A DNA stretch of 47,606 nucleotides, from contig JALHQW010000059.1 in assembly GCA_022841745.1 (NCBI GenBank), positions 1 through 47,606 of the forward strand, written 5' to 3'. Positions 23,683-46,775 of this stretch are shown here, piece by piece (position 1 is the stretch's first letter; the number at the start of each line of letters is the position of its first letter). This DNA comes from Saprospiraceae bacterium. GTDB taxonomy: Bacteria; Bacteroidota; Bacteroidia; Chitinophagales; Saprospiraceae. The notes under the pieces were generated by a model. That model saw only the letters and a list, made by a program, of their open reading frames with translations. It had not been told where the DNA came from and did not search any database. Made by a program: the position numbers and the translations under genes.

Positions 23683-23719
23683 GGCTTTGAATTTTATGCT
23701 GCCCATAAGGACAAAAGAT

Positions 23720-23762: not shown

Positions 23763-25355
23763 TTACTTGGAAATCACCAAGACTTGTGTCTGGTTTCCAG
23801 TGCTGGATTTCAAGGTCAAGAAATAAGTGCCAGCGGGAATTTTCCCTGTATCCACGGGAATTGCTTCCGTACCTTCCATGATTGTTTCAGCAAGAACCTG
23901 GACACCGAACGCATTGGTCAGGGTAAGCAATCCTTCCCCCTTCGATTTATCCACCAGTTCCACCACCAAATACTGGTTGGCCGGGTTGGGGTACATCCTG
24001 AAAGAAGGCTCGACCACCTTATCCTCGTCATTTGGCCTTGCAATTGGCTGTGGTGCTGCAAGGCCGCACAATGCCAAATCGTTGTATATGGCTTCATTGC
24101 CCAGCAATGCACGGGCCATGTACACGCCTTCCCCGCCCGAATAGGGGCACTGGTTGGCGATTGGCGTCAAATCCGAGATTTGCGTTGCCGTCAGTTCCGT
24201 TTGGTTGTTGGCAATCAGCTCCAGATATACCCGGTTGGCCGTGCGTTGGTTCGCCTCGAAGTTGGTAGTCGTTGAGACTGCCGCATTGGTGCCCAACAGT
24301 TGGGCTGCCGCTACCGTGCGGGCCGACAACATGGTTTGCTCCAAGGCTTGGGACTGAATTGCCAAAGTCTCCATTTCAGCCTTTTTCGCATCTCGTTGGG
24401 CAATCAGGCCTGCGTTGTTTGGCTGAACGGAAAGCGCATCCATGATGCTGCGCATTTCACCCATTTTGGTGGACATGCTGGTTTGTTGGCTTGCCAAGCT
24501 CGCCCTTGTGCCCGCATCCCCTGTCAACACGCTTTCTATGCTGGCCTTGATTGCCTCGAACCTGCCCACCGTACTGTTCTTCTCAGTGCCGAGGAAGCTC
24601 GCATAAACCGAACCTTGAGGGGCCAAAGTGGGGTCGGCCAACAATCGGCGGTACAACTGCCGCCTTGCCGTCCAGCCTTCTGCTGCGAACACGCCGATAT
24701 TAAAAGCCCCGGTAGCGATGCCATATTCCGTGCTGCTCAAGCTACCGCCGCCGTCTCCACCAATGGCAGCACTCGAACAGGCAGCCGTATTGCCGGCTTC
24801 CTGCCTAAAGTACCTTTGGCCATTGATATAGGTCCTTTCGGTGGAAATCAGATTGCCCCCATCAATGGTGTCAACGAATAACCGGGAGTTTGTCAATTCA
24901 AATGACTCTGTCGTATAATGAATCGCCCCATACCCCGTCGCCACGGGCGCCGTCAGCCACATATTCCCCCGGTGGCTCTGAACCCCGGTCAGGCCACCTA
25001 CGCCCTCGCTGCCGACCCTAAGCCCATGGAAGAAATTGGAGAAATTGTTCCCGGCGATGTCGGACGATAGGTTGCTGCTCTGGAACCACAGCCCAGTCCG
25101 GATATTGTCCATGATATTGCAGCTGTACTCCCCTTGGTCGGACGAACCCACTTTGATGCCGTACTGCAAGTTCACGAACCCGGTACCGCTAAAATCGTTA
25201 CCGAGCAACTCATTCGAGCCGCCCCCATCCACCGAGATGCCGTAGCCACCAGTTGTGTCAAGTCTCCCAACACCACAAAAAACCACCGTTCTGGAAAGTT
25301 TGCAACTTTCCAGGCTCCGCATTTCCCAAGTACCGATGACTTCATGCTCGTTCAT
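23763..25355 (-). pseudogene. 5'-truncated beta-helix/T9SS paralogue
   Basis: About 530 codons that match the C-terminal half of the 1064-residue protein at 26947-30141: the same last beta-helix turns (GYGISVDGGGSNELLGNDF), the same QSHRGN motif, the same helical region (ENWTAKRQLYR-like, QPNNAGLIAQRDAKK) and a type A T9SS domain. The signal peptide and about 500 N-terminal residues are missing. The only available start, ATG at 25355, overlaps the stop of the upstream gene as ATGA and reads through a perfect palindrome (25291-25313) unrelated to the family. It could be translated by coupling, but without a signal peptide it could not be exported, so I treat it as a relic. Confidence 0.75.
25291..25313. 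repeat. Perfect palindrome at the truncation junction
   Basis: CTGGAAAGTT, TGC, AACTTTCCAG: 10-bp arms around a 3-nt loop. It lies exactly where homology of the truncated gene to its full-length paralogue begins, so it may mark the recombination or insertion point. Confidence 0.7.
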
Positions 25356-26878
25356 TTTGCAATGATTAGCTTGCCATTCCCCACGCCCCTCCCCTCGCTC
25401 TCCACCCGCCAAAAATACATCCCAGTTGACAGTCCTTCCAGCAGAAAATTATGTCCAACCTGCCCCGCCGATATTTCCCAATGCCGCACTGGCTGCCCCG
25501 TTGCATTGAAAAGCCACAGCGTTGCTGGCTTTATTGAAGGTGCAATGTTTTCCAGGTGCAACTCGCAACTCGCCGGGTTCGGCCACACCCTCACTTCCTC
25601 CTCTTCCGGCGGCGGCACATACCCGCTCGATACATTCACGATACTGCTGTCACAAACAGGATACCCCGAGCCAAGGCGGTAGTGCGGGAAGTTGGGGATG
25701 GAGTAGTTCACCGAACAGGGCAGGGGCAGCCCCCGCTGCTCGAAGTTGCAGGCCGTGCCCAGTTCGTTGGGGTTGTGGATGACGTGCATGTACGCCACAG
25801 GGCCATGCGAGGTCATGTATATCTTGCAGTCGGGGCCAAGCTGCATGCGCTGGAAGGCAACGGCAAACTGAAGGCCAAAGAACTCATACACTAAGCCGTC
25901 GTATTCTCCCACTAACGTCTTGGACGACAGTAGGTCTGGTACCTCCAAGTCCAACTGCCAAAGTTTGGTCTGCGTTGAAGCATAAAGACGCTTGGAGTTG
26001 GGGGAAAATGCAAGGCCACTAAAATTAAATAATGGCGTGTCAAGTTCAATTTTCTGGTAATTGCTCAACTGCCCCGTGCTTCTGTCAAAATCAAATAAAA
26101 TCAGTTGGTCCATGAAGTCGTACTTGGCGAACTTTGTGCCGTCAGGGGAAAATGTAATTTGTCCACCACCGTTGATTGCCAACTCATCACCAATTATTTG
26201 AGAGTCTATTTCGCTGATGCCATTTTCGGTTAATAATACCTTGTAATATTTGTTGCCATTTTCTTTTATTGTCATTACCCACCAGTCTTTGTTGTTTGAA
26301 TGCTTGACAGCCTGCAACCCGGTATAAAAGGTGTTGCTCAATACAACCTGATTTTTTACTGTAACATCACCAAGCCCATTGTTTAATTCCATATCAACAA
26401 CAGAGTAGTAAAGCCTGTTGACCCTAACAAAAGGAGATTCATTATAGTATGCGAATGCTTGGTGGAACAAATAATACTTGTTGTCATCGTTTGGCATCGG
26501 CAATGCTATAATCCCGCCAACCGTCGCATAACCGCCATCAGGGCAACTGTTTTCATGTGAATCACCAGGATTAAGCGGTGAGCCATTTGGCATTATTTCA
26601 TGGTTGGCGTTTTTTACATCGCACCCATTTGAATAAAAGAGCAAATTACCTTCGCTATCTGACATGCTGACATTGGCAACATACATTGGATAATCAACCG
26701 ATAATTTCTCAATCGAAAGTTCTCCTTGTTCAAAACTTAACAAGTTCATGCAATTAATTGGATAGACATCAGGATTTGGGTCTTGCTCTACACCAATCAA
26801 CCAATTGTAGTCATTCTTATGTTGTGCATGAGAATAAAAAGTATAAAACAATAAAACAGCAGATAATAAATGCCTCAT
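25352..26878 (-). CDS. Secreted propeller-like protein with T9SS sorting domain, copy A
   Basis: A 508-residue protein with signal peptide (MRHLLSAVLLFYTFYSHA, then Q), a propeller-like body (ITFSPDGTKFAKYDFMDQLILFDFDRS, LAFSPNSKRLYASTQTKLWQLDLE) and a C-terminal type A T9SS domain beginning VRVWPNPASCELHLE and ending NGKLIIAK. It is paralogous to 22189-23682 along its whole length. In the direction of transcription it follows the full-length beta-helix gene, and the truncated beta-helix copy follows it through an ATGA overlap. The order helix, propeller, truncated helix, propeller points to tandem duplication of a two-gene module. Ligand and role are unknown. Confidence 0.85.
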   Translation of the reverse strand: MRHLLSAVLLFYTFYSHAQHKNDYNWLIGVEQDPNPDVYPINCMNLLSFEQGELSIEKLSVDYPMYVANVSMSDSEGNLLFYSNGCDVKNANHEIMPNGSPLNPGDSHENSCPDGGYATVGGIIALPMPNDDNKYYLFHQAFAYYNESPFVRVNRLYYSVVDMELNNGLGDVTVKNQVVLSNTFYTGLQAVKHSNNKDWWVMTIKENGNKYYKVLLTENGISEIDSQIIGDELAINGGGQITFSPDGTKFAKYDFMDQLILFDFDRSTGQLSNYQKIELDTPLFNFSGLAFSPNSKRLYASTQTKLWQLDLEVPDLLSSKTLVGEYDGLVYEFFGLQFAVAFQRMQLGPDCKIYMTSHGPVAYMHVIHNPNELGTACNFEQRGLPLPCSVNYSIPNFPHYRLGSGYPVCDSSIVNVSSGYVPPPEEEEVRVWPNPASCELHLENIAPSIKPATLWLFNATGQPVRHWEISAGQVGHNFLLEGLSTGMYFWRVESEGRGVGNGKLIIAK

Positions 26879-34200: not shown

Positions 34201-34285
34201 TAAATTGGCGAAGTTGAATACGAGGGTGAAGGTACAGGATGCGGTTTATGAGGCGATTTTGGATGAAAAAAATAGAAAAGATTAA
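31274..34285 (+). CDS. GH3 beta-N-acetylhexosaminidase fused to a beta-lactamase-type hydrolase
   Basis: A 1003-residue exported fusion. Residues 1-25 are a signal peptide. The GH3 domain (about 45-380) has the NagZ-type motif AKHFPGHGDTGTDSHYDLP with His226 and His230, and the nucleophile Asp312 in LTDGLEMHAV. A middle GH3 C-terminal-like domain (about 405-590) follows. The C-terminal part (about 610-1000) is a serine beta-lactamase/esterase-type domain with nucleophile Ser669 in SITK, a YSD motif (KYSDLGFY) and HLGFTG near the end. It probably trims muropeptides or chitin-like glycans, with the second domain acting on the peptide. A run of GGCAGT words (32553-32585) encodes a low-complexity VGSSAVGSGQSG. 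The stop overlaps the convergent gene by three bases. A TAACTTAG element at 31254-31261 could be its -7 box. Confidence 0.9.
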   Translation: MQTLKKTFALLLVALAYIVLSAASFTRRPAQPIPSFKEHLEENAWVDSTYAALSPDERLGQLFWLRAHTDKDAAYEAAVEEQVKKYRPGGLCFFNPTAKGTPEKQVELTNRYQAHAPKLPMFITIDGEWGLGMRMRGTAMSFPRQLMLGAIQDNTLIYKMGEQIAKHCKRVGVNFNFAPVADVNNNAANPVIGFRSFGEDPYNVAAKAYQYMLGMQDNGVLASAKHFPGHGDTGTDSHYDLPLINHDLSRLDTVELFPFKILIRQGVGSIMVAHLNIPAMDNTPNLASSLSPKIVTDLLRNQLNYKGLVLTDGLEMHAVTKHFGKGEVEARALAAGNDVLLLPADLDAAWRTVKQWISDGRIAYSSITASVKNVLRWKYRMGVQFTKPLAIEGVRADVNDPAALAVKRELIANALTLVKNEGNVIPVGSSAVGSGQSGAAKLAALAIGAGSGNTFHKRLSSFPIGAGGKIETFTSGKDVSNSLITKLKGKDAVIVSLHDMSQFASKGYGLTQETKDFIEALRKETRVILVLFGNPYAAKFFENVQNLLVCYEEDDEVQDLAAQALFGVFPLRGKLPVTASPALPSGTGITTTAVERLGYGVPEEVGMSSSKLEKVDELMTEAITEGATPGGVVLVARKGKIVWRKAYGHHTYDPKARPTEPDDIWDLASITKIAASTISLMRLQEDGKFDPKDPVEKYLPEFASTNKKGIPLVDMMTHRGRLMPWIKFYEKTITPAAKPSSSFYQSKRSDAYSLPVAKDLWLKTGYEKEIWQQIMDSPLEPSKEYKYSDLGFYIASEIIKRQSGQPIEEFAKRTFYEPLGLGTMGYRPYERFPLERIPPTENDDYFRDRRIQGYVHDMGAAMLNQATGHAGLFSTAEDLAVLMQLLLNKGSYGGMQYLKPETINYYTTRCQGCTRRGIGFDMFQKNTSYENNLSKLASDGTFGHLGFTGTAVWVDPEQELIYIFLSNRTFPSMKNNKLAKLNTRVKVQDAVYEAILDEKNRKD

Positions 34286-35007
34286 GCTGTAACAAAGGAT
34301 TTGGCAACTGGCATTTCACTGTAAGTTTTTCCATTTAATAATCGCCCAGTTTTCTTTTTGTTAGTACCACCCCATTGTTTAAAAAAGAATGCAACGCCAT
34401 GTATTTCGCATTTCTGATGAATTTCTTCTACCCATGCCTGCTTTATGGGCCTTGGCTTCCTACCGCTCTCACCACCAACGATAACCCAATCTATACCTGT
34501 TATATCCAAATTGTTGAGTGGGCCTATCAAAGGCTCGCAAGAAAGGAATTTTACCTTTGCATTCGTACCACGAAGAAAATCAACCCTTTCCAACACCCTA
34601 TCATCCTCCACTGAAACGCCCATCCAGATATTTTCCGTCCAATTTAATTCTTTGTGATACTCGTAAAGCAAATGCGCCCTTTTGGTCAATACCTGAAAAA
34701 TGTGCTGAGGATTGTCATTCATTACCTCAAACACCTGTTGAATATAACTTAGTGGTACCTTCTCATGGAAAAGGTCGCTCATGGAGTTCACAAAGACGAT
34801 TTGTGGTTTTTTCCAAGTGTAAGGAATCTTAAGGGTATCTGGATGGAGGGTTAACTCAAATCCATTGGCATATTTTTCCAAGCCCATTGCCTTCAAGCGG
34901 CGAGACATCACCTCTGCATAGCAATACTTGCAGCCTTGCGAAACCTTGTTGCACCCTGTAGTGGGGTTCCAAGTCATTTCTGTCCATTCTATTGATGATT
35001 GAGCCAT
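34282..35007 (-). CDS. Three-Cys-motif protein, Gp37/Gp68-like (DUF5131)
   Basis: A 241-residue protein of the phage Gp37/Gp68-like family. The three cysteines that give the family its name are C19, C26 and C29 in NPTTGCNKVSQGCKYCYAEV, a layout like a radical-SAM iron-sulfur site. Other family blocks are FVNSMSDLFHEKVP, FQVLTKR, WMGVSVED, FLSCEPLIGPL, DWVIVGGESG and FFFKQWGG. The gene starts two bases after the TcmP stop and is thus second in a two-gene operon. The family is known from phages, plasmids and accessory islands and its reaction is not established. The base composition is clearly more AT-rich than flanking housekeeping genes, suggesting transfer. It converges on the GH3 gene with overlapping stops. 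Confidence 0.9.
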   Translation of the reverse strand: MAQSSIEWTEMTWNPTTGCNKVSQGCKYCYAEVMSRRLKAMGLEKYANGFELTLHPDTLKIPYTWKKPQIVFVNSMSDLFHEKVPLSYIQQVFEVMNDNPQHIFQVLTKRAHLLYEYHKELNWTENIWMGVSVEDDRVLERVDFLRGTNAKVKFLSCEPLIGPLNNLDITGIDWVIVGGESGRKPRPIKQAWVEEIHQKCEIHGVAFFFKQWGGTNKKKTGRLLNGKTYSEMPVAKSFVTA

Positions 35008-35009
35008 TC

Positions 35010-35915
35010 TTACAATTTTGAAATTATTTGACTTGCAATTTTCAGAGCACTTGCATTATTTGAAGCAAAAACAAAATGAAATATTGGACATCCTTTGGTA
35101 TTATCTAACCTCAATGGTTTCTTGGTCACATACTTCCATGCTTTTTGCATGTTCTCAATATAGATTTGAGCTATTTTGTTTATTGGATCTGATATTTTCT
35201 GCACGATTTCCCTTTCCTCAAATAGAGTGGTTTCAATTTTTGATTGGTAAAAATGTTTTCTTATCTCTTCTTCGGACATGCCAAAAAAACTTTCAAGTTT
35301 ATTGATGTACTTGAGTTGCCCTTTTCTGTCAAGCAACCTATTCACAATTACACCAGTTGGTAAAAGTATCCACACATCTGACCTAGTTTCTGCAAATTGA
35401 GCAATAGACTTCCAATCAACCTGCATACCAAAAGGGTCAATAAATGCTAAAGCTGCCAACTCCTTCGATCGGCTTTTAAGGGCATTAGCAAGCTTAGTTA
35501 ATTCAACATTGCAGTCCTTATCCCGAAATTCTAACCTTTTATCCCCTTTCTCTTTTAAGGCACCCAATCTTGCTTTTAGTTTCTCTATGTTATTAGGGTC
35601 TTTGTCAATGAAATAGTAATAGTCAAAATCGTATGGTTTTTGTAATCTGACGACTCTCTCTGCTGCTCCATGATAGACGTTTTCTTCTTCTTCAGAAATA
35701 TCAAATTCGCTCCAAAGCTTTAGTTCAGTTTCATCATGTGGCTTAGCCTTCCTCTCACCACTTCCAGCAAAACCATCGAAGTAGATTACTTTCCAATGAT
35801 ATTTTTTCATTATAGTCAAATACGCCTGAACATACTTAATGAAAGCGTCAAGTTTCTTTTCAGTCCATGGCCCACCCCAGCCACCTTCAATTGATTCTTT
35901 GTTATTATTTGTCAT
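35010..35915 (-). CDS. Three-Cys-motif partner protein TcmP
   Basis: A protein of about 301 residues with the TcmP signature: an N-terminal GGWGGPWTEKKLDAFIKYVQAYLTIM and VIYFDGFAGSGE, resembling the SAM-binding region of a Rossmann methyltransferase, and a central LAALAFIDPFGMQVDWKSI. TcmP is described as occurring next to a three-Cys-motif gene, and here that gene follows directly. The start at 35915 (MTNNNKESIEGG) is preferred; an ATG at 35936 lies inside the promoter's -7 element. The genes are AT-rich and flanked by unrelated housekeeping genes, so this looks like a transferred two-gene module. Its biological role is not settled. Confidence 0.85.
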   Translation of the reverse strand: MTNNNKESIEGGWGGPWTEKKLDAFIKYVQAYLTIMKKYHWKVIYFDGFAGSGERKAKPHDETELKLWSEFDISEEEENVYHGAAERVVRLQKPYDFDYYYFIDKDPNNIEKLKARLGALKEKGDKRLEFRDKDCNVELTKLANALKSRSKELAALAFIDPFGMQVDWKSIAQFAETRSDVWILLPTGVIVNRLLDRKGQLKYINKLESFFGMSEEEIRKHFYQSKIETTLFEEREIVQKISDPINKIAQIYIENMQKAWKYVTKKPLRLDNTKGCPIFHFVFASNNASALKIASQIISKL

Positions 35916-37809: not shown

Positions 37810-39282
37810 ATGAAAAATAAGCTCTTTTTGCTCGCCTTGCTGCTGCCCGTGCTTGCCCACTCGCAAGACGACGACTTGGTCTATTTCGATTATGTCTATT
37901 TGGACAATATTAAGACCATCAAGTTCCATGTGGACGGCTACCCGACCAGCATGCCCATCATCGAGCTGACCAGTGCGGATCAGTTGCTGCTTTCCTTCGA
38001 CGACCTGAATGGCGACACAAAGAACTACGTCTATACCATCGAGCATTGCGATGCCAACTGGAACCCCTCGAACATCCCAGAATTCGACTATGTTGAGGGA
38101 TTTTCGGAGGCAATGGTCAGGGACTTCGATTTTTCCTTCAGGGTTCAGACAAAATATACGCACTACTGGCTGAGCTTCCCGAACCAAGACATGCGGCCCC
38201 GCCTCAGCGGCAATTACCTGTTGAAGGTCTATGAAGACGAGGACGAAAAGCAGTTGGCGCTCACCCGAAGGTTCATGGTGCTGGATACCAAGGTGAAGGT
38301 GAACGGCAGGGCAGTGCGGCCAGCGAGGGTGGACAAGATTATGACGCACCAGGAGATTGATTTCACAGTGCTGCACGAAAAACTCGACTTCCGAAGCCCG
38401 CAGCAGGAACTGAACGCCACAGTGATTCAGAATGGCCGTTGGGACAATGCGTTTGCTGGCCTTAAGCCCCTGTTCAGCAAGCCCGGCCAGCAGCTTTTCG
38501 ACTACCAGGACAAAATCGTGTTCCCAGCGGGCAAGGAGTTCCGCTACCTTGACGCACGGGGGGTGAGGTACCCCGACCCCCGCATTATTTCCATCAGCAA
38601 CAAGGATGGCAAGTACGAGTCGGTGCTGGAAAAAGACCTGAAACGGGGCGAGATGCCCTATTTCGAATGGCGGGACATCAACGGCAGTTTCGTCATACAA
38701 AACACCGATTTCCAGAACCAAGTGACCGGCGCAGGCGGGCGGCCAGCGACTGGCAATCTCAGCCTCGGCCTCACGCCGCAGGAGGAGCGGGAATTCCAGC
38801 AGCGCACGGCCCGTGCCTCCTCCGCCGAGGAGCGGGCCGCCATCCAGCAGGAGCGCATCAACCTGCAGAATGAGCGGGGCATCCTGAGCAACCAGCCCGC
38901 TTTCAACAACGAGTTTGAAATCAACAACCTCCAGTGCGAGTACCTCGATGTGCTCTTCCAGCTTTCCAGCATCGGTGAAATGGAGGACGAGGATGTTTAC
39001 CTCTTCGGTGCCTTCACCGACTGGCAACTGAAGCCGGAGTACAAGATGGTCTTCAACCCCGCCACCAATGCCTACGTGGCCAAGGCGACGCTCAAGCAGG
39101 GCTATTATGAATATATGTACGCCGAATTGCCGCATGGCAGCAGCACTCCCAACTTCGAGGTGACCGAGGGCAACTGGCACGAGACCGACAACTACTACAC
39201 GATTTTGGTCTATCAGCGCCCCTTCGGTGGCCGGTACGACCAGTTGATTGGGGCATCGTCGTTTTCGGCGAGAGAGCAGTAG
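37810..39282 (+). CDS. T9SS Plug protein (DUF5103)
   Basis: A 490-residue exported protein with a signal peptide (MKNKLFLLALLLPVLAHS). It matches the DUF5103 family, whose Flavobacterium member, called Plug, gates the channel of the type IX secretion translocon on the periplasmic side. Blocks seen include IKTIKFHVDGYPTSMPIIEL, YTIEHCDANWNPSNIPEFDY, NYLLKVYEDEDEKQLALTRRF and the C-terminal VYLFGAFTDWQLKPEYKM. The adjoining T9SS cargo proteins in this window fit this role. It is not in a larger T9SS cluster here. The spacer before the start carries a possible promoter. Confidence 0.87.
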   Translation: MKNKLFLLALLLPVLAHSQDDDLVYFDYVYLDNIKTIKFHVDGYPTSMPIIELTSADQLLLSFDDLNGDTKNYVYTIEHCDANWNPSNIPEFDYVEGFSEAMVRDFDFSFRVQTKYTHYWLSFPNQDMRPRLSGNYLLKVYEDEDEKQLALTRRFMVLDTKVKVNGRAVRPARVDKIMTHQEIDFTVLHEKLDFRSPQQELNATVIQNGRWDNAFAGLKPLFSKPGQQLFDYQDKIVFPAGKEFRYLDARGVRYPDPRIISISNKDGKYESVLEKDLKRGEMPYFEWRDINGSFVIQNTDFQNQVTGAGGRPATGNLSLGLTPQEEREFQQRTARASSAEERAAIQQERINLQNERGILSNQPAFNNEFEINNLQCEYLDVLFQLSSIGEMEDEDVYLFGAFTDWQLKPEYKMVFNPATNAYVAKATLKQGYYEYMYAELPHGSSTPNFEVTEGNWHETDNYYTILVYQRPFGGRYDQLIGASSFSAREQ

Positions 39283-39296
39283 TGCCTTATTTTTTG

Positions 39297-39304
39297 TAAG
39301 TTTG
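39297..39304 (+). promoter_or_regulatory. -7 element of the ATPase-nuclease pair
   Basis: TAAGTTTG matches TANNTTTG and lies 19 bp before the start at 39324, placing transcription start near 39311. No clear -33 element was found. Confidence 0.5.
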
Positions 39305-39323
39305 CCCACTAAAACGACAACGC

Positions 39324-40358
39324 ATGGCCGAAGAATTTGCCAATAAAATAAAGCGCCTGGAACTGGAAAACTTCACCTGCTTCGGCAAGGTGGCAATGGA
39401 TTTTTCGCCGGGCATCAACGTCTTCATCGGGGAGAACGGGACGGGGAAGACGCATTTGTTGAAGGTGTTGTATGGGCTTTCTTCAGGAGCAGATATAAAA
39501 TCCACCCTTTTAGAAAGGGTGTTTAAGGTATTCTCAGACTCAGAATTAGTTAAAAGAGGAAAATATAAATCCCACATTGTTTTAACCTATAAAAACGAGA
39601 TTATCACTAATGAGATTTTTGAAAAACCAATAACAGGAGTACTGGTAGCCGAACCAATGGCTATGTATATGAATAATAATAGGCTTTTTGTGCCAACTCT
39701 AGAGTTATTATCGTGGTTTAAAGGCTTTATAGCTTCTTATGAAAATAGAGAAAGTTATATTGATGAAACATATTATTACTTGGCTAAAGCAATTGACCCA
39801 CTCCCTTTAAAAAGCAACGCATTGGAAGAACAGAAACCATTGATGCTGGAACTTGAAGAGGCTATTAATGCGAAAGTGATAAGAAGGGGAAATGATTTTT
39901 TTATAGCATTTATTGATGAAAACAAAGAATATCCCGTTCAAACCGTCGCCACCGGCATCAACAAGCTCGCCCAACTTATCTACCTCATCATGAACGGCTC
40001 GCTCACCAAGGACACCATCCTTTTCTGGGACGAGCCAGAGGCGAATTTGAACCCGAAATATATCCTCGTGGTGTCCAAATTCCTGCAAACGCTGGCGAAG
40101 GCGGGCTGCCAGATTTTCGTTGCCACGCATGACTACCTGCTACCCTATGATTTATCGCTTTCCAAAGAATACCAAGATGTGGAAGGTGGGGCACCCGATA
40201 TGAAGTTCTTTTCCTTGTACAAGGGCGAGAACGGTACAGCGGTCGAAGAAGGTGCTACCATGTCCGACCTCAACCACGACCCCATCCATGAAGGGCTTTC
40301 GCAGCACAACAACCGGGAGGATGCGCTTTTCAGAAAATCCCTCAATCCGCAAGCATGA
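39324..40358 (+). CDS. AAA (ABC-type) ATPase of a putative defence or DNA-processing pair
   Basis: A 344-residue ATPase of the SMC/OLD-like AAA_15/AAA_21 group. The N-terminus ANKIKRLELENFTCF is the typical entry to the fold; Walker A is GENGTGKT at about 36-43, an LSGG-like turn is ATGINKLAQ, Walker B is TILFWDEPEANLNP, and the following H-loop IFVATHDYLL is intact. The region 39484-39930, covering residues 54-202, is markedly AT-rich against GC-rich ends that carry the ATPase motifs; this suggests that the central, probably partner- or target-specific, segment was exchanged. The gene overlaps the next one by four bases (ATGA). Pairs of this kind occur in anti-phage systems; no specific named system is matched. 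Confidence 0.85.
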   Translation: MAEEFANKIKRLELENFTCFGKVAMDFSPGINVFIGENGTGKTHLLKVLYGLSSGADIKSTLLERVFKVFSDSELVKRGKYKSHIVLTYKNEIITNEIFEKPITGVLVAEPMAMYMNNNRLFVPTLELLSWFKGFIASYENRESYIDETYYYLAKAIDPLPLKSNALEEQKPLMLELEEAINAKVIRRGNDFFIAFIDENKEYPVQTVATGINKLAQLIYLIMNGSLTKDTILFWDEPEANLNPKYILVVSKFLQTLAKAGCQIFVATHDYLLPYDLSLSKEYQDVEGGAPDMKFFSLYKGENGTAVEEGATMSDLNHDPIHEGLSQHNNREDALFRKSLNPQA

Positions 40359-40912
40359 AATCCTTCAAGGAAAGTGACCTTATTTTTGAGTTTAGCGACG
40401 CAGCTTGGTCAGATGTGCTCGAATTTGACAAAACCACGGACTACCAAAATGCCAAAAATGCCTTGCCCGGCACGAAAGGTGTTGATTTCACTGGCATTTT
40501 GGGCAATGAGGCTTTGGTATTCATTGAAGCAAAAAACTTTCGAGGGCACAGAATCAAAAGTAAGCCAAGGGTAGAAAATGGCGAAGACCCGATTTGGTTG
40601 GAAGCTGCCCAAAAGATGAGGGATTCGGTATCAGTTGTGGTAGGCAGTGCTCGAAACTCGACCCATTTGAAGGCGGTTTGGCAAAACTATCTGGAATACT
40701 TAGGCTACGAGCATAAATTCATACATTTCGTTCTGTGGCTGGAGCAGGATTTGCCACCAAATAATGCGGTGGCAAAGCGCAAATGGGAAAAGAATGAAAT
40801 TGACAATCGCCGCCATTTGAAAAGATGCCTGCGCTGGCTCACAAACAAAGTGGATATTGCCAGCATACAAAACAACCCCTTTCCCGACTCCCTGACCATC
40901 ACTTACCTGTAG
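40355..40912 (+). CDS. Putative PD-(D/E)XK nuclease partner of the ATPase
   Basis: A 185-residue protein without signal peptide. KGVDFTGILGNEALVFIEAKNF at about 46-67 fits a PD-(D/E)XK nuclease core: Asp49, then Glu63-Ala-Lys65 after a hydrophobic strand. A helix with Arg and Lys residues follows, and the C-terminal third is basic (KRKWEKNEIDNRRHLKRCLRW). It starts in the last four bases of the ATPase gene, so the two are likely made together and may form one complex in which the ATPase senses and the nuclease cuts. The family is unknown to me; the assignment rests on the motif and the context. It is followed by a word-repeat spacer before the receptor gene. Confidence 0.65.
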   Translation: MKSFKESDLIFEFSDAAWSDVLEFDKTTDYQNAKNALPGTKGVDFTGILGNEALVFIEAKNFRGHRIKSKPRVENGEDPIWLEAAQKMRDSVSVVVGSARNSTHLKAVWQNYLEYLGYEHKFIHFVLWLEQDLPPNNAVAKRKWEKNEIDNRRHLKRCLRWLTNKVDIASIQNNPFPDSLTITYL

Positions 40913-41067: not shown

Positions 41068-43443
41068 ATGAAAATCACCCGACTGTTTACAATCACATTT
41101 CTTTCGCTGCTCTTCGCAGCAATGGGCCATGCCCAAAACGCCACGCAAAATATCCGTGGCATCGTAATAGACCAGCAATCCGAAGTGCCGCTGATCGGCG
41201 TGACGGTGGAACTGCTGGATGCCGCCACTGCCACAGGAACCGTCACCGAACCCGATGGCTCTTTCGCCATTGAAAAAGTGGCCGTAGGCAGGCAGACACT
41301 GCGGTTCAGCTATGTAGGCTACGAGAGCGTTACCATCCCGAACGTCGTAGTGACGGCGGGCAAGGAGTCGTACCTCGAAGTGAAAATGGCCGAATCCTTC
41401 ACCCAACTGAACGAGGTGGTGGTGACGGCCCAAGTGGACAAGGACAAGGCGGGCAACGAACTGGCCACCATCAGCGCCCGACAGTTCTCGCTGGAGGAAG
41501 TGACCCGCTACTCCGGTGCCCGCAACGATGCCGCCCGCATGGCCGCCAATTTCGCAGGGGTGAACATCGCCGACGACAGCCGCAACGACATCGTGGTGCG
41601 GGGCAACTCCCCGACGGGCCTGCTCTGGCGAATGGAGGGCATTCCAATCCCGAACCCCAACCACTATTCCACCCTTGGCACCACGGGCGGACCCGTGAGC
41701 GCCCTGAACACCAACCTGCTGAAAAACAGCGACTTCCTCACCTCGGCCTTTCCTGCTGAATACGGCAATGCGCTTTCGGGCGTGTTCGACATCCAATTGC
41801 GGAGCGGCAACAAAGAGAACCACGAGTTCACAGCGCAGTTGGCGGCGTTCAGCGGCTTGGAGGCGATGGCCGAAGGCCCCATCAACAAAGAGAAAAATAG
41901 CTCTTACTTGGTGAGCTACCGCCACTCCTTTGTAGAGCTGGCCGACCAGGCAGGCTTGGATTTTGGCACTTCGGCCCTGCCACGGTACAAAGACCTCTCC
42001 TTCAAGGTGGACTTGCCAAAATCGAAACTGGGCAATATCAGCCTGTTCGGCATCGGCGGCCTGAGCAATATCGAATTCCTCGGAAAGGATTTGGCTGCCG
42101 ATGACTTCTACGGCGAGACCGACCAGAACAGCTATGTAAACTCGCAGTTCGGCGTCATTGGCCTCAACCAACGCTTGCTGCTCAACGAGAGCACCTATCT
42201 CCGCACCACCATTGCGGCCAGCAACTCCGCCAATACCTACGAAGAGGAGCGGGTACTTTCCGATGCCAGCATCCGCCGCCACTTGGAGGTGGACGATGCC
42301 GTGAACCGTTACACGGTCTCCAGTTTTTTGAACAAAAAATACAGCGCCCGCCACACGCTGCGGGTGGGCTTCATCGGCGAACTTTTCAACGTGAAAAATA
42401 GCGTACGTGACCGGGAGACTCGCCCCGATTGGGCAACGCTGCGTGACTTCGACGGCAACTTGGGCCTGCTGCAAGCTTACGCCCAGTCGCAGTATCGCCT
42501 CAGCGAAAAACTGACGCTGAACACGGGACTGCACACCCAATACCTGACCTTTAACGACACCTGGGCCGTGGAGCCTCGCCTCGCCCTCAATTTCCACCTG
42601 ACCGAAAACCAGCGCCTCAACCTCGGCTACGGCCTGCACAGCCAGATGCAGCCGCTGCCGATGTACTTCCTGCAAGTGCCGCAGGCTGATGGCAGCTATG
42701 TGCGCACCAACGAGGACATGGAGTTTAGCCGCAGCCACCAGTTCGTGCTCGGCTATGACGTGAAGGTGGGCGGCGACTGGCGCATCAAGGCGGAGACCTA
42801 CTACCAAGCACTGGGCAACGTGCCCGTGGAGAGCCAACCCAGCAGCTTTTCGATGCTGAACGCCGGGGCCGACTTCGCTTTCCCGGAAAAGCATTTCCTC
42901 GTGAACGACGGCACGGGCAAAAACTATGGCTTCGAGCTGACAGTGGAGAAGTTTTTCAGCAAGGGCTACTACGTGCTGGTGACCGGCTCCGTTTTCGATA
43001 GCAAATACAAAGGCAGCGACGACGTGGAGCGCAACACGGCCTTCAACAACAAATACACCCTGAACTTCTTGGCTGGCAAGGAGATAAAAATCGGCAAGGA
43101 CAAGCGCAACGCCCTTACCTTTGACACTAAGTTCACCACGGCGGGCGGGCGCTACTACACGCCGATTGACCTCGCAGCGAGCATTGAAAAAGGGGAGCAG
43201 GTTTTCTTGGATGACCAGGCGTACAGCGAGCGCATTGACCCCTACCTGCGCTGGGACGTGAAGTTCGGCTACCGCCTCAACAGCAAGAAGCGCAAGCTCT
43301 CGCAGCAGTTCTTCCTCGACTTCCAGAACGTGACGAACCACGAGAACGTCTTCACTTACCGCTTCAACCGCCAGCGTGGCGAGGTGCAGCAGGTAAACCA
43401 AATCGGCTTCTTCCCGGATTTGCTGTGGAGGGTGCAGTTTTGA
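41068..43443 (+). CDS. TonB-dependent outer-membrane receptor
   Basis: A 791-residue receptor. A signal peptide (MKITRLFTITFLSLLFAAMGHA, then Q) is followed by a carboxypeptidase-regulatory-like domain (NIRGIVIDQQSEVPLIGVTVEL, residues 28-105), a plug domain (about 110-250; IVVRGNSPTGLLWRMEGIPIPNPNHY) and a long beta-barrel ending in Phe (PDLLWRVQF). It takes up an unknown ligand across the outer membrane using TonB energy; no SusD partner is next to it, which argues against a classical polysaccharide locus. The start at 41068 begins at the signal peptide; the upstream reading frame reaching 40825 is not coding. It is followed by a two-component system of LytS/LytTR type on the same strand, likely related in regulation. 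Confidence 0.93.
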   Translation: MKITRLFTITFLSLLFAAMGHAQNATQNIRGIVIDQQSEVPLIGVTVELLDAATATGTVTEPDGSFAIEKVAVGRQTLRFSYVGYESVTIPNVVVTAGKESYLEVKMAESFTQLNEVVVTAQVDKDKAGNELATISARQFSLEEVTRYSGARNDAARMAANFAGVNIADDSRNDIVVRGNSPTGLLWRMEGIPIPNPNHYSTLGTTGGPVSALNTNLLKNSDFLTSAFPAEYGNALSGVFDIQLRSGNKENHEFTAQLAAFSGLEAMAEGPINKEKNSSYLVSYRHSFVELADQAGLDFGTSALPRYKDLSFKVDLPKSKLGNISLFGIGGLSNIEFLGKDLAADDFYGETDQNSYVNSQFGVIGLNQRLLLNESTYLRTTIAASNSANTYEEERVLSDASIRRHLEVDDAVNRYTVSSFLNKKYSARHTLRVGFIGELFNVKNSVRDRETRPDWATLRDFDGNLGLLQAYAQSQYRLSEKLTLNTGLHTQYLTFNDTWAVEPRLALNFHLTENQRLNLGYGLHSQMQPLPMYFLQVPQADGSYVRTNEDMEFSRSHQFVLGYDVKVGGDWRIKAETYYQALGNVPVESQPSSFSMLNAGADFAFPEKHFLVNDGTGKNYGFELTVEKFFSKGYYVLVTGSVFDSKYKGSDDVERNTAFNNKYTLNFLAGKEIKIGKDKRNALTFDTKFTTAGGRYYTPIDLAASIEKGEQVFLDDQAYSERIDPYLRWDVKFGYRLNSKKRKLSQQFFLDFQNVTNHENVFTYRFNRQRGEVQQVNQIGFFPDLLWRVQF

Positions 43444-43568
43444 TATTGGTTTGATGAGTTTGAATGGTTTGATGGGTTTGAGTTGTTCGAGGCGCAATTC
43501 AAACGCCTCAAACCATTCAAACGCCTCAAACTATTCAAACCCATCAAACTCCTCAAACCCATCAAACA
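43444..43568. repeat. Long word-repeat hairpin between receptor and kinase
   Basis: About 120 bp of degenerate GTTTGATGG words. The left arm (GGTTTGATGAGTTTGAATGG, then GTTTGATGGGTTTGAG) is the reverse complement of the right arm (CCTCAAACCATTCAAACG, CCCATCAAACTCCTCAAACC), so the spacer folds into one large imperfect hairpin right before the kinase start. Confidence 0.8.
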
Positions 43569-44615
43569 ATGAACAAAGCTTCCGAAATACTCGGCTTCAA
43601 CGACCGCTGGTTGGTCATCATCGGGGTGCCGGTGGTGGCAATGCTGACGGGGCTGCTGATGTTCGCCGACGTGCTGGTGGCGTCGCCACGGGTTTTCTTC
43701 ACCACTTGCTTTTTGGTGGGACTGGCCTATACGGCAATATACTGGCTGGTATTTCGGTACGCTTGCGTCTATTGGCGAAGCAAATACCCGAAATTAGAGC
43801 AGAGCGGCAAACGCATTGTTTACCTGGTGCTGACGGTGGTCATTGGTTATTTCTTGTTAAAATTAGTGCTCGACCCCTTTTTGCACAAGCCTTTTGAGAA
43901 TGAATTGGGCGTTGCAAAATTGGAGCATGAAATCGCCATGTCCGTCGCTTCGTTGCTCGTCACCTTCCTTGTGCTGGGCATCTATGAGGGCGTCGGGCTG
44001 TTCAACCTGCTGAAAACTGCCCAATTGGAAAAAGAGCGCCTGCTGAAGGAAAACATGCAGAGCCAGCTCGAAAGCCTGCGCAACCAAGTGAACCCCCATT
44101 TCTTCTTCAACAGTCTGAACACGCTGGCCTACCTCATCCCGGAGGACAGTGGAAAGGCCGTCAATTTCGTGCGAAAGCTCTCGCAGACCTACCGCTACAT
44201 CCTCGACGTGCGGGAGCGGGAACTGGTGAGTTTGGAGGAAGAATTGAATTTCTTGAAAGCGTTTGTCTCCTTGCTCAAAGAGCGCTTCGGCGAAAACCTC
44301 CAGGTCGAAATTGCGGTGCAACCGCAGCTGATGCAGCACCAAACCCTGCCGCTGGCGCTGCAAATGCTGATGGAGAACGCCATCAAGCACAATATCGTGT
44401 CGGCGCAGCACCCCCTGCACATTCATATCGGCACCGAGTCCGACGACCGGCTGGTGGTGCGGAACCACCTCCAGCGCAAGCCCCACCCCGAACCCGGCAC
44501 GGGCACCGGCCTCGACAATATCCGCAACCGCAGCCGCCTCTTGATGAACCGGGAAGTGGAAGTGATGGAGACGGAGGGGGAGTTTGTGGTGGTGCTGCCG
44601 TTGTTGAAAGTTTGA
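43569..44615 (+). CDS. LytS-type sensor histidine kinase
   Basis: A 348-residue membrane kinase of the His_kinase (PF06580) family. Four membrane segments are likely (about 15-35, 42-63, 84-102 and 124-146). After a coiled segment the H-box is LRNQVNPHFFFNSLNTLAYL with His177, and the ATPase domain has the N-box LQMLMENAIKHN and GTGLDNIRNR. No extracellular sensing domain is present, as in YehU/LytS-like kinases, so the input probably acts through the membrane. The partner regulator lies downstream after a 120-bp hairpin spacer. Confidence 0.93.
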   Translation: MNKASEILGFNDRWLVIIGVPVVAMLTGLLMFADVLVASPRVFFTTCFLVGLAYTAIYWLVFRYACVYWRSKYPKLEQSGKRIVYLVLTVVIGYFLLKLVLDPFLHKPFENELGVAKLEHEIAMSVASLLVTFLVLGIYEGVGLFNLLKTAQLEKERLLKENMQSQLESLRNQVNPHFFFNSLNTLAYLIPEDSGKAVNFVRKLSQTYRYILDVRERELVSLEEELNFLKAFVSLLKERFGENLQVEIAVQPQLMQHQTLPLALQMLMENAIKHNIVSAQHPLHIHIGTESDDRLVVRNHLQRKPHPEPGTGTGLDNIRNRSRLLMNREVEVMETEGEFVVVLPLLKV

Positions 44616-44735
44616 TATTGATTTGCTGTTCAAAAAATCAAAAATCATACATCTTATATCTGAAATCTTAAATCAGATAAATGTGGATTTAAGATGTATG
44701 ATATAAGATGTATGATTTCAGATTGAAACACCCAC
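44616..44735. repeat. AT-rich nested hairpin between kinase and regulator
   Basis: AAATCATACATCTTATATC (44642-44660) is perfectly complementary to 44700-44718. Inside, ATCTTAAATC (44665-44674) pairs with GATTTAAGAT (44686-44695). It consists of variants of the word ATACATCTTA. Confidence 0.85.
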
Positions 44736-45506
44736 ATGAATATCCTCCTCATCGAAGACGAACTCCCCGCCGCCCGGCTCCTTGCCAAGCTACTGGCCGA
44801 GCATTGCCCGCAGGGCAATATCATGGCCACGCTCGACTCCGTGGAGGCTGCTTCGCAATGGCTGCAAAAGCCGCCGACCGAGCCTGACCTTATCTTCATG
44901 GACATCCAACTGGCGGACGGCCTCAGTTTCGACATTTTCAACCAGACCGAGGTGCGCTCGCCCGTCATTTTTACCACCGCCTTCGACCAGTACATGCTCA
45001 AGGCGTTCAAGGTACACAGCATTGACTACCTGCTGAAGCCCGTGGAACCAGAGGAACTGGTGCGGGCGCTGGAGAAATATGAGCGTTTTTTCAAGCAACA
45101 GGCCGCCTTCGACTTTGGCAGCATCCAGCAAATGCTACAGGCCGCCGTGCAGCGCCCCCAGTACAAGGAGCGCTTCCTCGTCAAGTCCGGCCAGCACCTC
45201 ATCCACCTGCCCATCGCCGACATCGCCTATTTTTTCTCGGAAGACAAACTGGCCTTTGCCAAGGGCAACGATGGCCGCAAGCACATCATCGAATACACCC
45301 TCGACCAGTTGGAGGGCTGCCTCGACCCCCGCCAGTTCTTCCGCATCAACCGCCAGACACTGGTGCGCCCCGAGGCCATCGGCAAAATATCGCAGTGGTT
45401 CAACAGCCGCCTGAAAGTGGAACTGCTGCCCCCCGGCAACGAAGCCGAAGTGGTGAGCCGGGAGCGGGTGGCGGAGTTTAAGAAGTGGTTGAATGGGGAG
45501 GTATAG
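44736..45506 (+). CDS. LytTR-family response regulator
   Basis: A 256-residue regulator. The receiver domain (1-120) has Glu7-Asp8-Glu9, phosphoacceptor Asp56 in LIFMDIQLADG, and Lys in LLKPVEPEEL. The C-terminal LytTR domain (about 150-253; YKERFLVKSGQHLIHLPIADIAYFFSEDKLAFA, FFRINRQTLVRPEAI) binds direct-repeat DNA sites. It follows the LytS-type kinase and would be its partner. Candidate targets are not identified; the neighbouring receptor gene is an obvious guess, which is inference. Confidence 0.94.
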   Translation: MNILLIEDELPAARLLAKLLAEHCPQGNIMATLDSVEAASQWLQKPPTEPDLIFMDIQLADGLSFDIFNQTEVRSPVIFTTAFDQYMLKAFKVHSIDYLLKPVEPEELVRALEKYERFFKQQAAFDFGSIQQMLQAAVQRPQYKERFLVKSGQHLIHLPIADIAYFFSEDKLAFAKGNDGRKHIIEYTLDQLEGCLDPRQFFRINRQTLVRPEAIGKISQWFNSRLKVELLPPGNEAEVVSRERVAEFKKWLNGEV

Positions 45507-45617: not shown

Positions 45618-46775
45618 ATGATAACTCGCAATCTAGCCGAACACATAAAGGCTGCCCAGGAAAAATACCCAGTAGTCACCGTCACAGGCCCTCGACAGGG
45701 TGGTAAAACCACGCTGATAAAGTCCCTCTTTCCTGATATTCCTTATTTTTCAATGGAAACGCCCGATATGCGCCAGCAGGTGAGCGAAAATCCGAGGGAA
45801 TTGTTTGCCCGGCATGGCCACCGCATGGTGCTTGACGAAGTACAACGGACGCCAGAGGTTTTGTCCTATATCCAAACCATTGTGGATGAAGACCCCAATG
45901 CATTTTTCGTCTTATCGGGATCGCATAATATGCTCATGATGGAAAACGTGAGCCAGACACTTGCTGGTAGAACGGCCATTTTTTATCTATTGCCTTTCTC
46001 CATGACAGAGCTGGGCACAGCGGGGGTTGTGCCTGAGAAATACGAAGAACTATTATTCAAAGGCGCTTATCCACGGCTTTATGACAAGGGCCTTGACCCT
46101 GTCGGTTTCTATCAAAGTTATATCGAAACCTACGTACAGCGGGATGTGAGGCAACTCAAAAACATCGGTAATCTCAATCTATTCAATCGGTTTCTCTCCA
46201 TGTGTGCAGGGCATATCGGTCAGATAGTCAACTACTCTACGCTGGCGAACCAAGTGGGCATCAGTGTAAGTACGGCTCAAAGCTGGCTCTCCATTTTAGA
46301 GACTTCCTTTATTGTTTATCAACTAAACCCCTACTTCAGAAACTTCAACAAGCGCATCGTGAAATCGCCAAAACTCTATTTTTATGACACGGGCCTGGCT
46401 TGCTCCCTGCTGCGCATTACTAGCTTGGATGCATTGGAAAACTACTATCAAAAAGGCAGCCTGTTCGAGAATTTTGTCATCAATGAAATATCAAAAGCAT
46501 ACTATAACAAAGGCTCCCGCCCCCCCATCTACTACTGGCGGGACAGCACAGGCCGGGAAATAGACCTCGTGCTTGACCTCGGCGGGCGGCTCTTGCCCAT
46601 TGAGGTGAAATCTGGCAGAACCTTCAATTCCGATTTTTTCAAGAACATCGAGTGGTGGGAGGGCATTGCTGACATGCCCTTGGAAAACGGCGTGGCCATT
46701 TATGGCGGCGACACCGATTGGGAGACGGCGCATGGCAAGTTGGTTTCATGGAAGCATATGCAAAGCTTGTTTTGA
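45618..46775 (+). CDS. AAA_14/DUF4143 ATP-binding protein
   Basis: A 385-residue ATPase of the AAA_14 plus DUF4143 type, very common in Bacteroidota. Walker A is GPRQGGKTTLIKSL (residues 24-37), Walker B MVLDEVQRTPEVL and a sensor LSGSHNMLM; a winged-helix region follows (YSTLANQVGISVSTAQSWLSIL). The C-terminal DUF4143 domain ends with a PD-(D/E)XK-like core (GREIDLVLDLGGRLLPIEVKSG). Such proteins are abundant in accessory regions, and their role is not known; a defensive or toxin-antitoxin-like function has been suggested by context only. It lies directly before the right inverted repeat. Confidence 0.9.
   Translation: MITRNLAEHIKAAQEKYPVVTVTGPRQGGKTTLIKSLFPDIPYFSMETPDMRQQVSENPRELFARHGHRMVLDEVQRTPEVLSYIQTIVDEDPNAFFVLSGSHNMLMMENVSQTLAGRTAIFYLLPFSMTELGTAGVVPEKYEELLFKGAYPRLYDKGLDPVGFYQSYIETYVQRDVRQLKNIGNLNLFNRFLSMCAGHIGQIVNYSTLANQVGISVSTAQSWLSILETSFIVYQLNPYFRNFNKRIVKSPKLYFYDTGLACSLLRITSLDALENYYQKGSLFENFVINEISKAYYNKGSRPPIYYWRDSTGREIDLVLDLGGRLLPIEVKSGRTFNSDFFKNIEWWEGIADMPLENGVAIYGGDTDWETAHGKLVSWKHMQSLF

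What the first reader, a model, noticed from the sequence alone, without database searches (positions are those of the whole stretch)
39324..40912. ATPase-nuclease pair with an exchanged middle segment
Genes overlap by ATGA; one carries all ATPase motifs, the other a PD-(D/E)XK core. The base composition of 39484-39930 drops sharply while the motif-bearing ends stay like the host. A variable centre between constant ends is what arms-race selection or cassette swapping would produce. I know no named system with this exact pair.
Basis: partly seen in the sequence, partly recalled or inferred. Interest (0 to 1): 0.75.

Follow-up and report, generated by a model that had tools for sequence, protein, structure and literature searches.

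The report
Mosaic ATPase-nuclease phage-defence pair (HEC-02)
This two-gene pair belongs to a predicted but little-studied bacterial phage-defence family, and comparison with relatives indicates that its nuclease, together with the last piece of the partner ATPase, is exchanged between otherwise different versions like a plug-in module.

Summary
The sequence facts hold: ATGA overlap, ATPase plus PD-(D/E)XK-like nuclease, sharp GC drop (32% against 51%). The pair is not nameless: PADLOC's candidate system HEC-02 matches both genes (4.6e-77, 2.8e-20).

The low-GC centre occurs in all seven full-length same-genus copies measured and is 83-94% identical per 100 bp to G011, so it is not a recent private exchange. 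What switches in G011 is the ATPase tail plus nuclease: nuclease 24% identical, next-door TonB protein 95%. Body and tail+nuclease trees reject each other; all four combinations occur. Across 68 copies, given the rest of the ATPase, nuclease similarity tracks mainly the part from residue 261 on. Mosaic signals: 77 of 336 triples, against 0 (RecF) and 1 (RecN).

Most likely: an ABC-ATPase sensor body holds a nuclease effector through its C-terminal tail, and recombination in the Walker B block swaps effector modules. Mosaicism is shown; docking, sensing and defence are inferred.

The parts
39287..39323 (+). conserved upstream stretch with a TAnnTTTG-like box (39297-39304); probable 5' edge of the element
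   Evidence: DNA similarity to G001, G010, G007 and G009 begins at 39282-39290 although their upstream sequences differ; G011 stays similar further upstream (same site), G012 matches only from the start codon. Promoter consensus is recalled; 5 of 8 aligned copies fit it exactly
39324..40358 (+). HEC-02 ATPase (AAA_15/AAA_21, Rad50/PtuA-like ABC head), 344 aa
   Evidence: PADLOC PDLC04213 4.6e-77; Pfam AAA_15 2.7e-21; AlphaFold2 pLDDT 90; Foldseek top hits Rad50, PtuA and SMC heads
39324..39473 (+). N block (res 1-50) with Walker A 39429-39452; host-like GC3
   Evidence: 78-99% DNA identity to six same-genus copies; GC3 0.74
   Evidence: GC3 0.28; lowest-GC stretch of the window; same dip in all seven full-length same-genus copies measured
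39945..40139 (+). B block (res 208-272): Walker B 40020-40034, H-loop His 40128-40130; recombination block
   Evidence: recurrent DNA-similarity borders; in one significant triple G007 takes 39944-40139 from the window type
40140..40355 (+). ATPase C-terminal tail (res 273-344), inherited with the nuclease
   Evidence: r 0.79 with nuclease identity over 68 copies, other segments 0.33-0.60; step in partial correlation at about residue 261; AU test on the tail alone rejects the body tree, p 5e-6
40355..40912 (+). HEC-02 nuclease, PD-(D/E)XK-like, 185 aa; D44 40484-40486, E58 40526-40528, K60 40532-40534
   Evidence: PADLOC PDLC04228 2.8e-20; D44 51/52, E58 52/52, K60 51/52; AlphaFold2 pLDDT 94; no Foldseek hit at E<=0.001, Shedu nuclease domain among the weak ones

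Best explanation
The pair is a HEC-02-type candidate anti-phage system built from exchangeable modules. The ABC-type ATPase body (res 1-272) most likely forms an ATP-bound dimer or oligomer that senses infection, with the variable stretch (about res 51-120) the likeliest sensing surface. Its C-terminal tail (helix, two beta strands and a long last helix, res 272-340 in the model) holds the small PD-(D/E)XK nuclease until the trigger lets it cut nucleic acid. Homologous recombination in the conserved Walker B block joins a body to a new effector module made of cognate tail plus nuclease; N block and B block are themselves patchily shared among alleles. Shown here: match to the HEC-02 models, operon, motifs, mosaicism, module border, tail-nuclease co-inheritance. 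Inferred: tail-nuclease docking, oligomer, trigger, nuclease activity, phage defence.
For: HEC-02 models hit both genes and both genes of the three relatives scanned, G011, G009 and G007. Of 80 homologous loci, 72 have an ORF directly downstream, 65 of these with a PD-(D/E)XK-like motif (loose pattern), 22 with the same 4-base overlap. Window against G011: 83-98% DNA identity per 100 bp from 39301 to 40100, 62-64% from 40101 to 40300, 39-43% to 40900, then 75-97% in the TonB gene; the ATPase frame stays open, and TonB, LytS and LytR proteins are 94-98% identical. Body tree: window+G011+G001+G010, G009+G012. Module tree: window+G001+G010+G012, G011+G009. AU rejections 6e-10 and 4e-5. Triples: HEC-02 77 of 336 (23 without G011), RecF 0 of 336, RecN 1 of 336. 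Standardised coefficient for nuclease identity: tail 0.70, others at most 0.08, 0 of 999 permutations (68 copies); in a 14-copy subset tail 0.71, N 0.24. Partial r 0.39-0.45 from residue 261 on, at most 0.21 before.
Against: No experiment. The string HEC-02 occurs in one held paper only, as an unrelated label; the source preprint is not held. Many relatives are draft or metagenome genomes; G011's junction was not checked against reads. Physical linkage alone could give the tail-nuclease correlation. The tail tree by itself does not group G011 with G009 (low support); nuclease and tail+nuclease do. Shared high GC3 may inflate B-block similarity, and HEC-02 copies are more divergent than RecF or RecN, so the control has less power. 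In six loci of five same-genus genomes the neighbours look mostly like housekeeping genes (ORFs judged by eye). The nuclease model has no significant PDB match.
Confidence: 0.7

Rival explanations
1. Pure functional constraint: Walker motifs are conserved, the part between them evolves fast, and nothing was exchanged.
For: RecN of the same genomes has its lowest synonymous divergence in the Walker A segment in 7 of 9 comparisons (0.11-0.71 there, 0.28-0.93 elsewhere); across 68 family copies the stretch behind Walker A is the most variable part.
Against: Nearest-relative order changes along the locus: 77 of 336 triples against 0 and 1 in RecF and RecN; body and module trees reject each other; no RecF or RecN segment has GC3 below 0.37, while the HEC-02 centre is at 0.24-0.35.
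Confidence: 0.1
2. One reading: the middle segment 39484-39930 alone is a swapped cassette between constant ends.
For: Some triple-test borders fall at 39473-39513 and 39934-39971; the N block of G012 is 89% identical to the window while its centre is 42%.
Against: The centre is 83-94% identical per 100 bp to G011 and goes with the N block there; its composition is shared by all seven full-length same-genus copies measured; no second copy or cassette found in the own genome with the whole ATPase as query (three weak ATPase hits besides itself).
Confidence: 0.2
3. A toxin-antitoxin-like or DNA-repair pair rather than phage defence.
For: Rad50/SMC-like fold; in several relatives it sits among genes that look like housekeeping genes.
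Against: Patchy: 8 of 14 genus genomes (E<=1e-20) and 8 of 298 sampled family genomes; different chromosomal sites; HEC-02 models score far above RecF or other repair models; PDC-M41 and PDC-S01 candidates lie within 5 kb in the window.
Confidence: 0.15

Closest known systems
HEC-02 (Hma-embedded candidate, PADLOC-DB 2.0.0; preprint 10.1101/2024.01.29.577857 not held, seen only as a citation)
   Same: Both genes match its models; ATPase followed by a small PD-(D/E)XK-like partner
   Different: No Hma gene was identified among the neighbours that were annotated (no Hma search was run); the tail+nuclease exchange was not found described in the papers searched
PARIS (AriA/AriB)
   Same: ABC-type ATPase with a nuclease effector; AriA models are the best non-HEC hits (7.4e-23)
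   Different: AriB is a Toprim nuclease (abstract of PMC12409363 in a search listing); here PD-(D/E)XK-like. Release on trigger is borrowed by analogy (recalled)
Septu (PtuA/PtuB)
   Same: ATPase of the Rad50/PtuA fold with a nuclease partner
   Different: PtuB is an HNH nuclease (recalled); PtuA models match far more weakly than HEC-02 (2.5e-11 against 4.6e-77)
Type I restriction specificity subunit HsdS (recalled)
   Same: Conserved DNA blocks let variable parts be exchanged by recombination
   Different: Here the exchanged unit is an effector gene plus a piece of its partner, not a DNA-recognition domain; inverted repeats or an invertase were not sought

Membership tests
HEC-02 | ATPase matches an HEC-02 ATPase model | tested here: met
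   PDLC04213 4.6e-77; best non-HEC family AriA 7.4e-23
HEC-02 | adjacent small protein matches an HEC-02 nuclease model | tested here: met
   PDLC04228 2.8e-20; 4-base overlap
HEC-02 | found within an Hma locus (origin of the name) | not tested
   no Hma search was run; annotated neighbours are T9SS plug, TonB-type receptor and a histidine kinase
HEC-02 | anti-phage activity | not testable with these tools
   several HECs are said to be active (passages of PMC12988326 and PMC12409356); nothing held on HEC-02
PD-(D/E)XK nucleases | D...ExK core | tested here: met
   D44 51/52, E58 52/52, K60 51/52
PD-(D/E)XK nucleases | fold match to a solved member | tested here: inconclusive
   no Foldseek hit at E<=0.001; Shedu, BstEII and Hef among hits at E 0.19-1.3
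PARIS | Toprim nuclease AriB partner | tested here: not met
   all 7 PADLOC families hit by the partner at E<=1 are HEC-02 models; it carries a D...ExK core
Septu | HNH nuclease PtuB partner | tested here: not met
   partner hits only HEC-02 models in PADLOC and one sub-threshold DUF6661 match in Pfam
HsdS-like shuffling | phylogenetic incongruence between parts of one locus | tested here: met
   AU 6e-10 and 4e-5; 77 of 336 triples
HsdS-like shuffling | local reservoir of silent cassettes or inversion | tested here: inconclusive
   no cassette found in the own genome with the whole ATPase; inverted repeats not searched

The most novel reading that the evidence does not exclude
HEC-02 is a combinatorial immune system. 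Conserved N and B blocks act as recombination adaptors, kept similar and host-like in composition because they are repeatedly exchanged, so that sensor bodies and effector modules (cognate ATPase tail plus nuclease) are reassorted in place within populations, changing what is sensed and what is cut independently.
Probability: 0.3. Interest if true: 0.7.

Novelty: new member of a known kind. Interest (0 to 1): 0.45.

Why it matters
HEC-02 is a predicted system that I found described in no paper of the held library under that name. The border found here, just behind the ATPase H-loop, says which piece of the ATPase should hold the nuclease and makes the sensor/effector split directly testable by co-purification and chimeras. 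It also shows how a defence system can change effector without losing its sensor.

Tried and rejected
Low synonymous divergence of the N block as evidence of exchange: dropped after the RecN control. Codon choice for accuracy at conserved sites as cause of the GC3 pattern: not favoured, because conserved residues 129-154 have GC3 0.19-0.42 in seven same-genus copies and B-block residues 208-240 of G010, G009 and G012 only 0.39-0.48. A family-wide GC dip: weak, mean ends minus centre 0.079, positive in 63 of 80 copies scored. Polarity of substitutions in the centre: too few sites. Positive selection: pN stays below pS in the close pairs looked at. Triples WIN/G011/G001 between res 1-207 and 208-272 (p 0.078) and G010/G009/WIN between N and B blocks (p 0.22) gave no significant switch. 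G011-type nuclease elsewhere in 298 family genomes: nearest is G009, 41% over the match. Mobile carriers: 3 viral contigs, 4 plasmids (E<=1e-25) and 2 phage records (E<=1e-15), all at 33% identity or less, so no vehicle is known.

Rows dropped: in the 68-copy test ten loci were removed by name, others for lacking a downstream ORF or for nuclease length outside 160-225. Eight of 80 loci had no downstream ORF found; four of these (L036, L070, L074, L080) end within 1 kb. The structure alignments used 60 of 80 ATPase loci and 51 of the downstream ORFs besides the window. For RecF the script dropped G003; G003 and, for RecN, G006 were left out, and G008 stood in for the second G010 copy.

Correction: I gave the TonB gene a start one base off, so its identities there (54-75%) are wrong; one search gives 94.6% (G011), 88.4% (G006), 83.8% (G001) and 83.1% (G013).

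Full report
What is there. The ATPase (39324-40358) and the nuclease (40355-40912) overlap by ATGA. The nearest named records are Saprospiraceae (titles). GC of 39484-39930 is 0.324 in a window averaging 0.514, and the lowest 447-bp stretch of the window lies in this dip. The dip is at third codon positions (0.28 against 0.74 and 0.82 on either side), so amino acid content does not explain it.

What it is. PADLOC's HEC-02 models match both genes (4.6e-77 and 2.8e-20), well ahead of PARIS, Gabija or Septu ATPases. Pfam gives AAA_15 and AAA_21 for the ATPase and only a sub-threshold match for the nuclease. Of the 80 best loci kept from 505 candidates, whose titles span several phyla, 72 have an ORF immediately downstream and 65 of these carry a PD-(D/E)XK-like motif by a loose pattern. 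E58 is identical in 52 of 52 aligned nucleases, D44 and K60 in 51; the Walker A lysine, Walker B DE and H-loop histidine in 61 of 61 aligned ATPases. Structure models are confident (pLDDT 90 and 94). The ATPase resembles Rad50, PtuA and SMC heads; the nuclease has no significant solved match.

Along the family the stretch behind Walker A is the most variable part (mean identity 35%, 24% and 15% for residues 41-70, 61-90 and 81-110, against 57% for 21-50 and 64% for 221-250; the tail has 28-32%). But ATPases of this kind show this anyway: RecN of the same genomes has its lowest synonymous divergence in the Walker A segment in 7 of 9 comparisons. So a variable centre between constant ends does not by itself show exchange.

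The low-GC centre is old in this genus. Seven full-length same-genus copies (window, G001, G011, G010, G007, G009, G012) all have centre GC3 of 0.24-0.35 between N blocks of 0.46-0.74 and B blocks of 0.54-0.83; the second G010 copy was not measured. RecF and RecN show no segment below 0.37. Over 80 family copies the contrast is small (0.079; 63 of 80 positive). I cannot say why the centre stays AT-rich; import from an AT-rich pool, or GC gain in blocks that recombine more, both fit.

Where exchange is visible. Window and G011 share the chromosomal site. Per 100 bp they are 83-98% alike from 39301 to 40100, 62-64% from 40101 to 40300, 39-43% from there to 40900, and 75-97% in the TonB gene. Protein identities: ATPase 81% overall but 38% in the tail, nuclease 24%, TonB 94.6%, LytS 94%, LytR 98%, upstream T9SS plug protein 63%. 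Window and G001 keep the module instead: tail 86% and nuclease 71% alike. Counting sites, body versus tail in this triple gives p 1e-19; G012 and G007 exchange rank between N and B blocks, p 2e-8; two other triples gave p 0.078 and 0.22.

Controls and trees. A permutation test for segment switches over all 336 ordered triples of eight copies finds 77 after Bonferroni correction, 23 without G011; RecF gives 0 of 336, RecN 1 of 336. RecF and RecN are less divergent, so the control has somewhat less power. Without G011, many borders lie near 39473-39513, 39934-39971, 40112-40140 and 40229-40433, others elsewhere. Trees of body (res 51-260) and module (tail+nuclease) for 15 copies reject each other (AU 6e-10 and 4e-5); nuclease alone and tail alone also reject the body tree (1e-6 and 5e-6). 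Nuclease and module trees group G011 with G009 (99 and 100); the tail alone does not resolve this. Body type I (window, G011) and type II (G012, G009) each occur with module type alpha (window, G012) and beta (G011, G009): all four combinations, as recombination would produce.

A module border in the ATPase. Over 68 copies, nuclease identity correlates with the tail at 0.79, with N, centre and B at 0.33, 0.52 and 0.60; in joint regression the tail keeps 0.70 and the others at most 0.08, 0 of 999 permutations; in a 14-copy subset tail 0.71, N 0.24, centre -0.21. In a sliding scan raw correlations are 0.22-0.57 in windows up to 241-270 and 0.65-0.67 from 261 on; partial correlations, given the rest of the ATPase, run from -0.29 to 0.21 before and 0.39-0.45 after. 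For the 2033 pairs at or below 45% identity they are 0.38-0.46 from 261 on, with a smaller peak of 0.27 at 141-170. The tail is therefore inherited with the nuclease. Contact between them is the simplest reason, but linkage alone could produce it.

Setting. In the window, G011, G001 and G006 the pair sits beside the same TonB gene; G007 and the second G010 copy share another site, judged by matching neighbour ORFs; the rest differ. It is present in 8 of 14 genus genomes (E<=1e-20) and 8 of 298 sampled family genomes. A short upstream stretch is conserved in copies at different sites. Two further PADLOC candidates, PDC-M41 and PDC-S01, lie within 5 kb.

Literature. HEC means Hma-embedded candidate; several HECs are reported active (passages of PMC12988326, PMC12409356 and PMC12111858; the last concerns HEC-04, an ATPase fused to Toprim). 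Searches for HEC-02 showed no paper describing it; the source preprint is not held. Searches on modular exchange in related systems (listings and abstract beginnings only) returned nothing on this pair. One listed abstract (PMC12799240) reports recurrent acquisition of nuclease-protease pairs by unrelated immune systems, so effector acquisition as such is known.

Verdict. A member of a named candidate family whose evolution is the interesting part: a mosaic with a sharp sensor/effector border inside the ATPase gene. Interest 0.45.

Noticed in passing
window 34282-35915 (-): A low-GC two-gene pair (GC 0.36 and 0.42; the second is DUF5131) matching PADLOC candidate PDC-M41 A and B (2.1e-111, 5.9e-128), 3.4 kb from HEC-02.
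   Followed up: partly
window 45618-46775 (+): AAA_14/DUF4143 protein matching PADLOC candidate PDC-S01 (5.2e-98); a 46% relative lies about 7 kb from HEC-02 in G007.
   Followed up: partly
window 37810-39282 against 41068-45506: Between window and G011 the T9SS plug protein is 63% identical but TonB, LytS and LytR 94-98%: a possible recent transfer block that begins near the HEC-02 5' edge.
   Followed up: no
L155 and L156 (genome G010): A second, divergent HEC-02 copy split over two contigs with 54 identical end bases; neighbour ORFs resemble those of the G007 copy.
   Followed up: partly
L160:13795-15806: One gene away from HEC-02 in G009, an ATPase matching AriA models (2.8e-30) with a small partner matching PDC-M29B weakly (9e-5).
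   Followed up: no
window 22189-23706 and 25352-26878 (-): Two proteins of 505 and 508 aa with Por_Secre_tail sorting domains, alike N-termini and GC 0.46, either side of another ORF; possible duplication.
   Followed up: no
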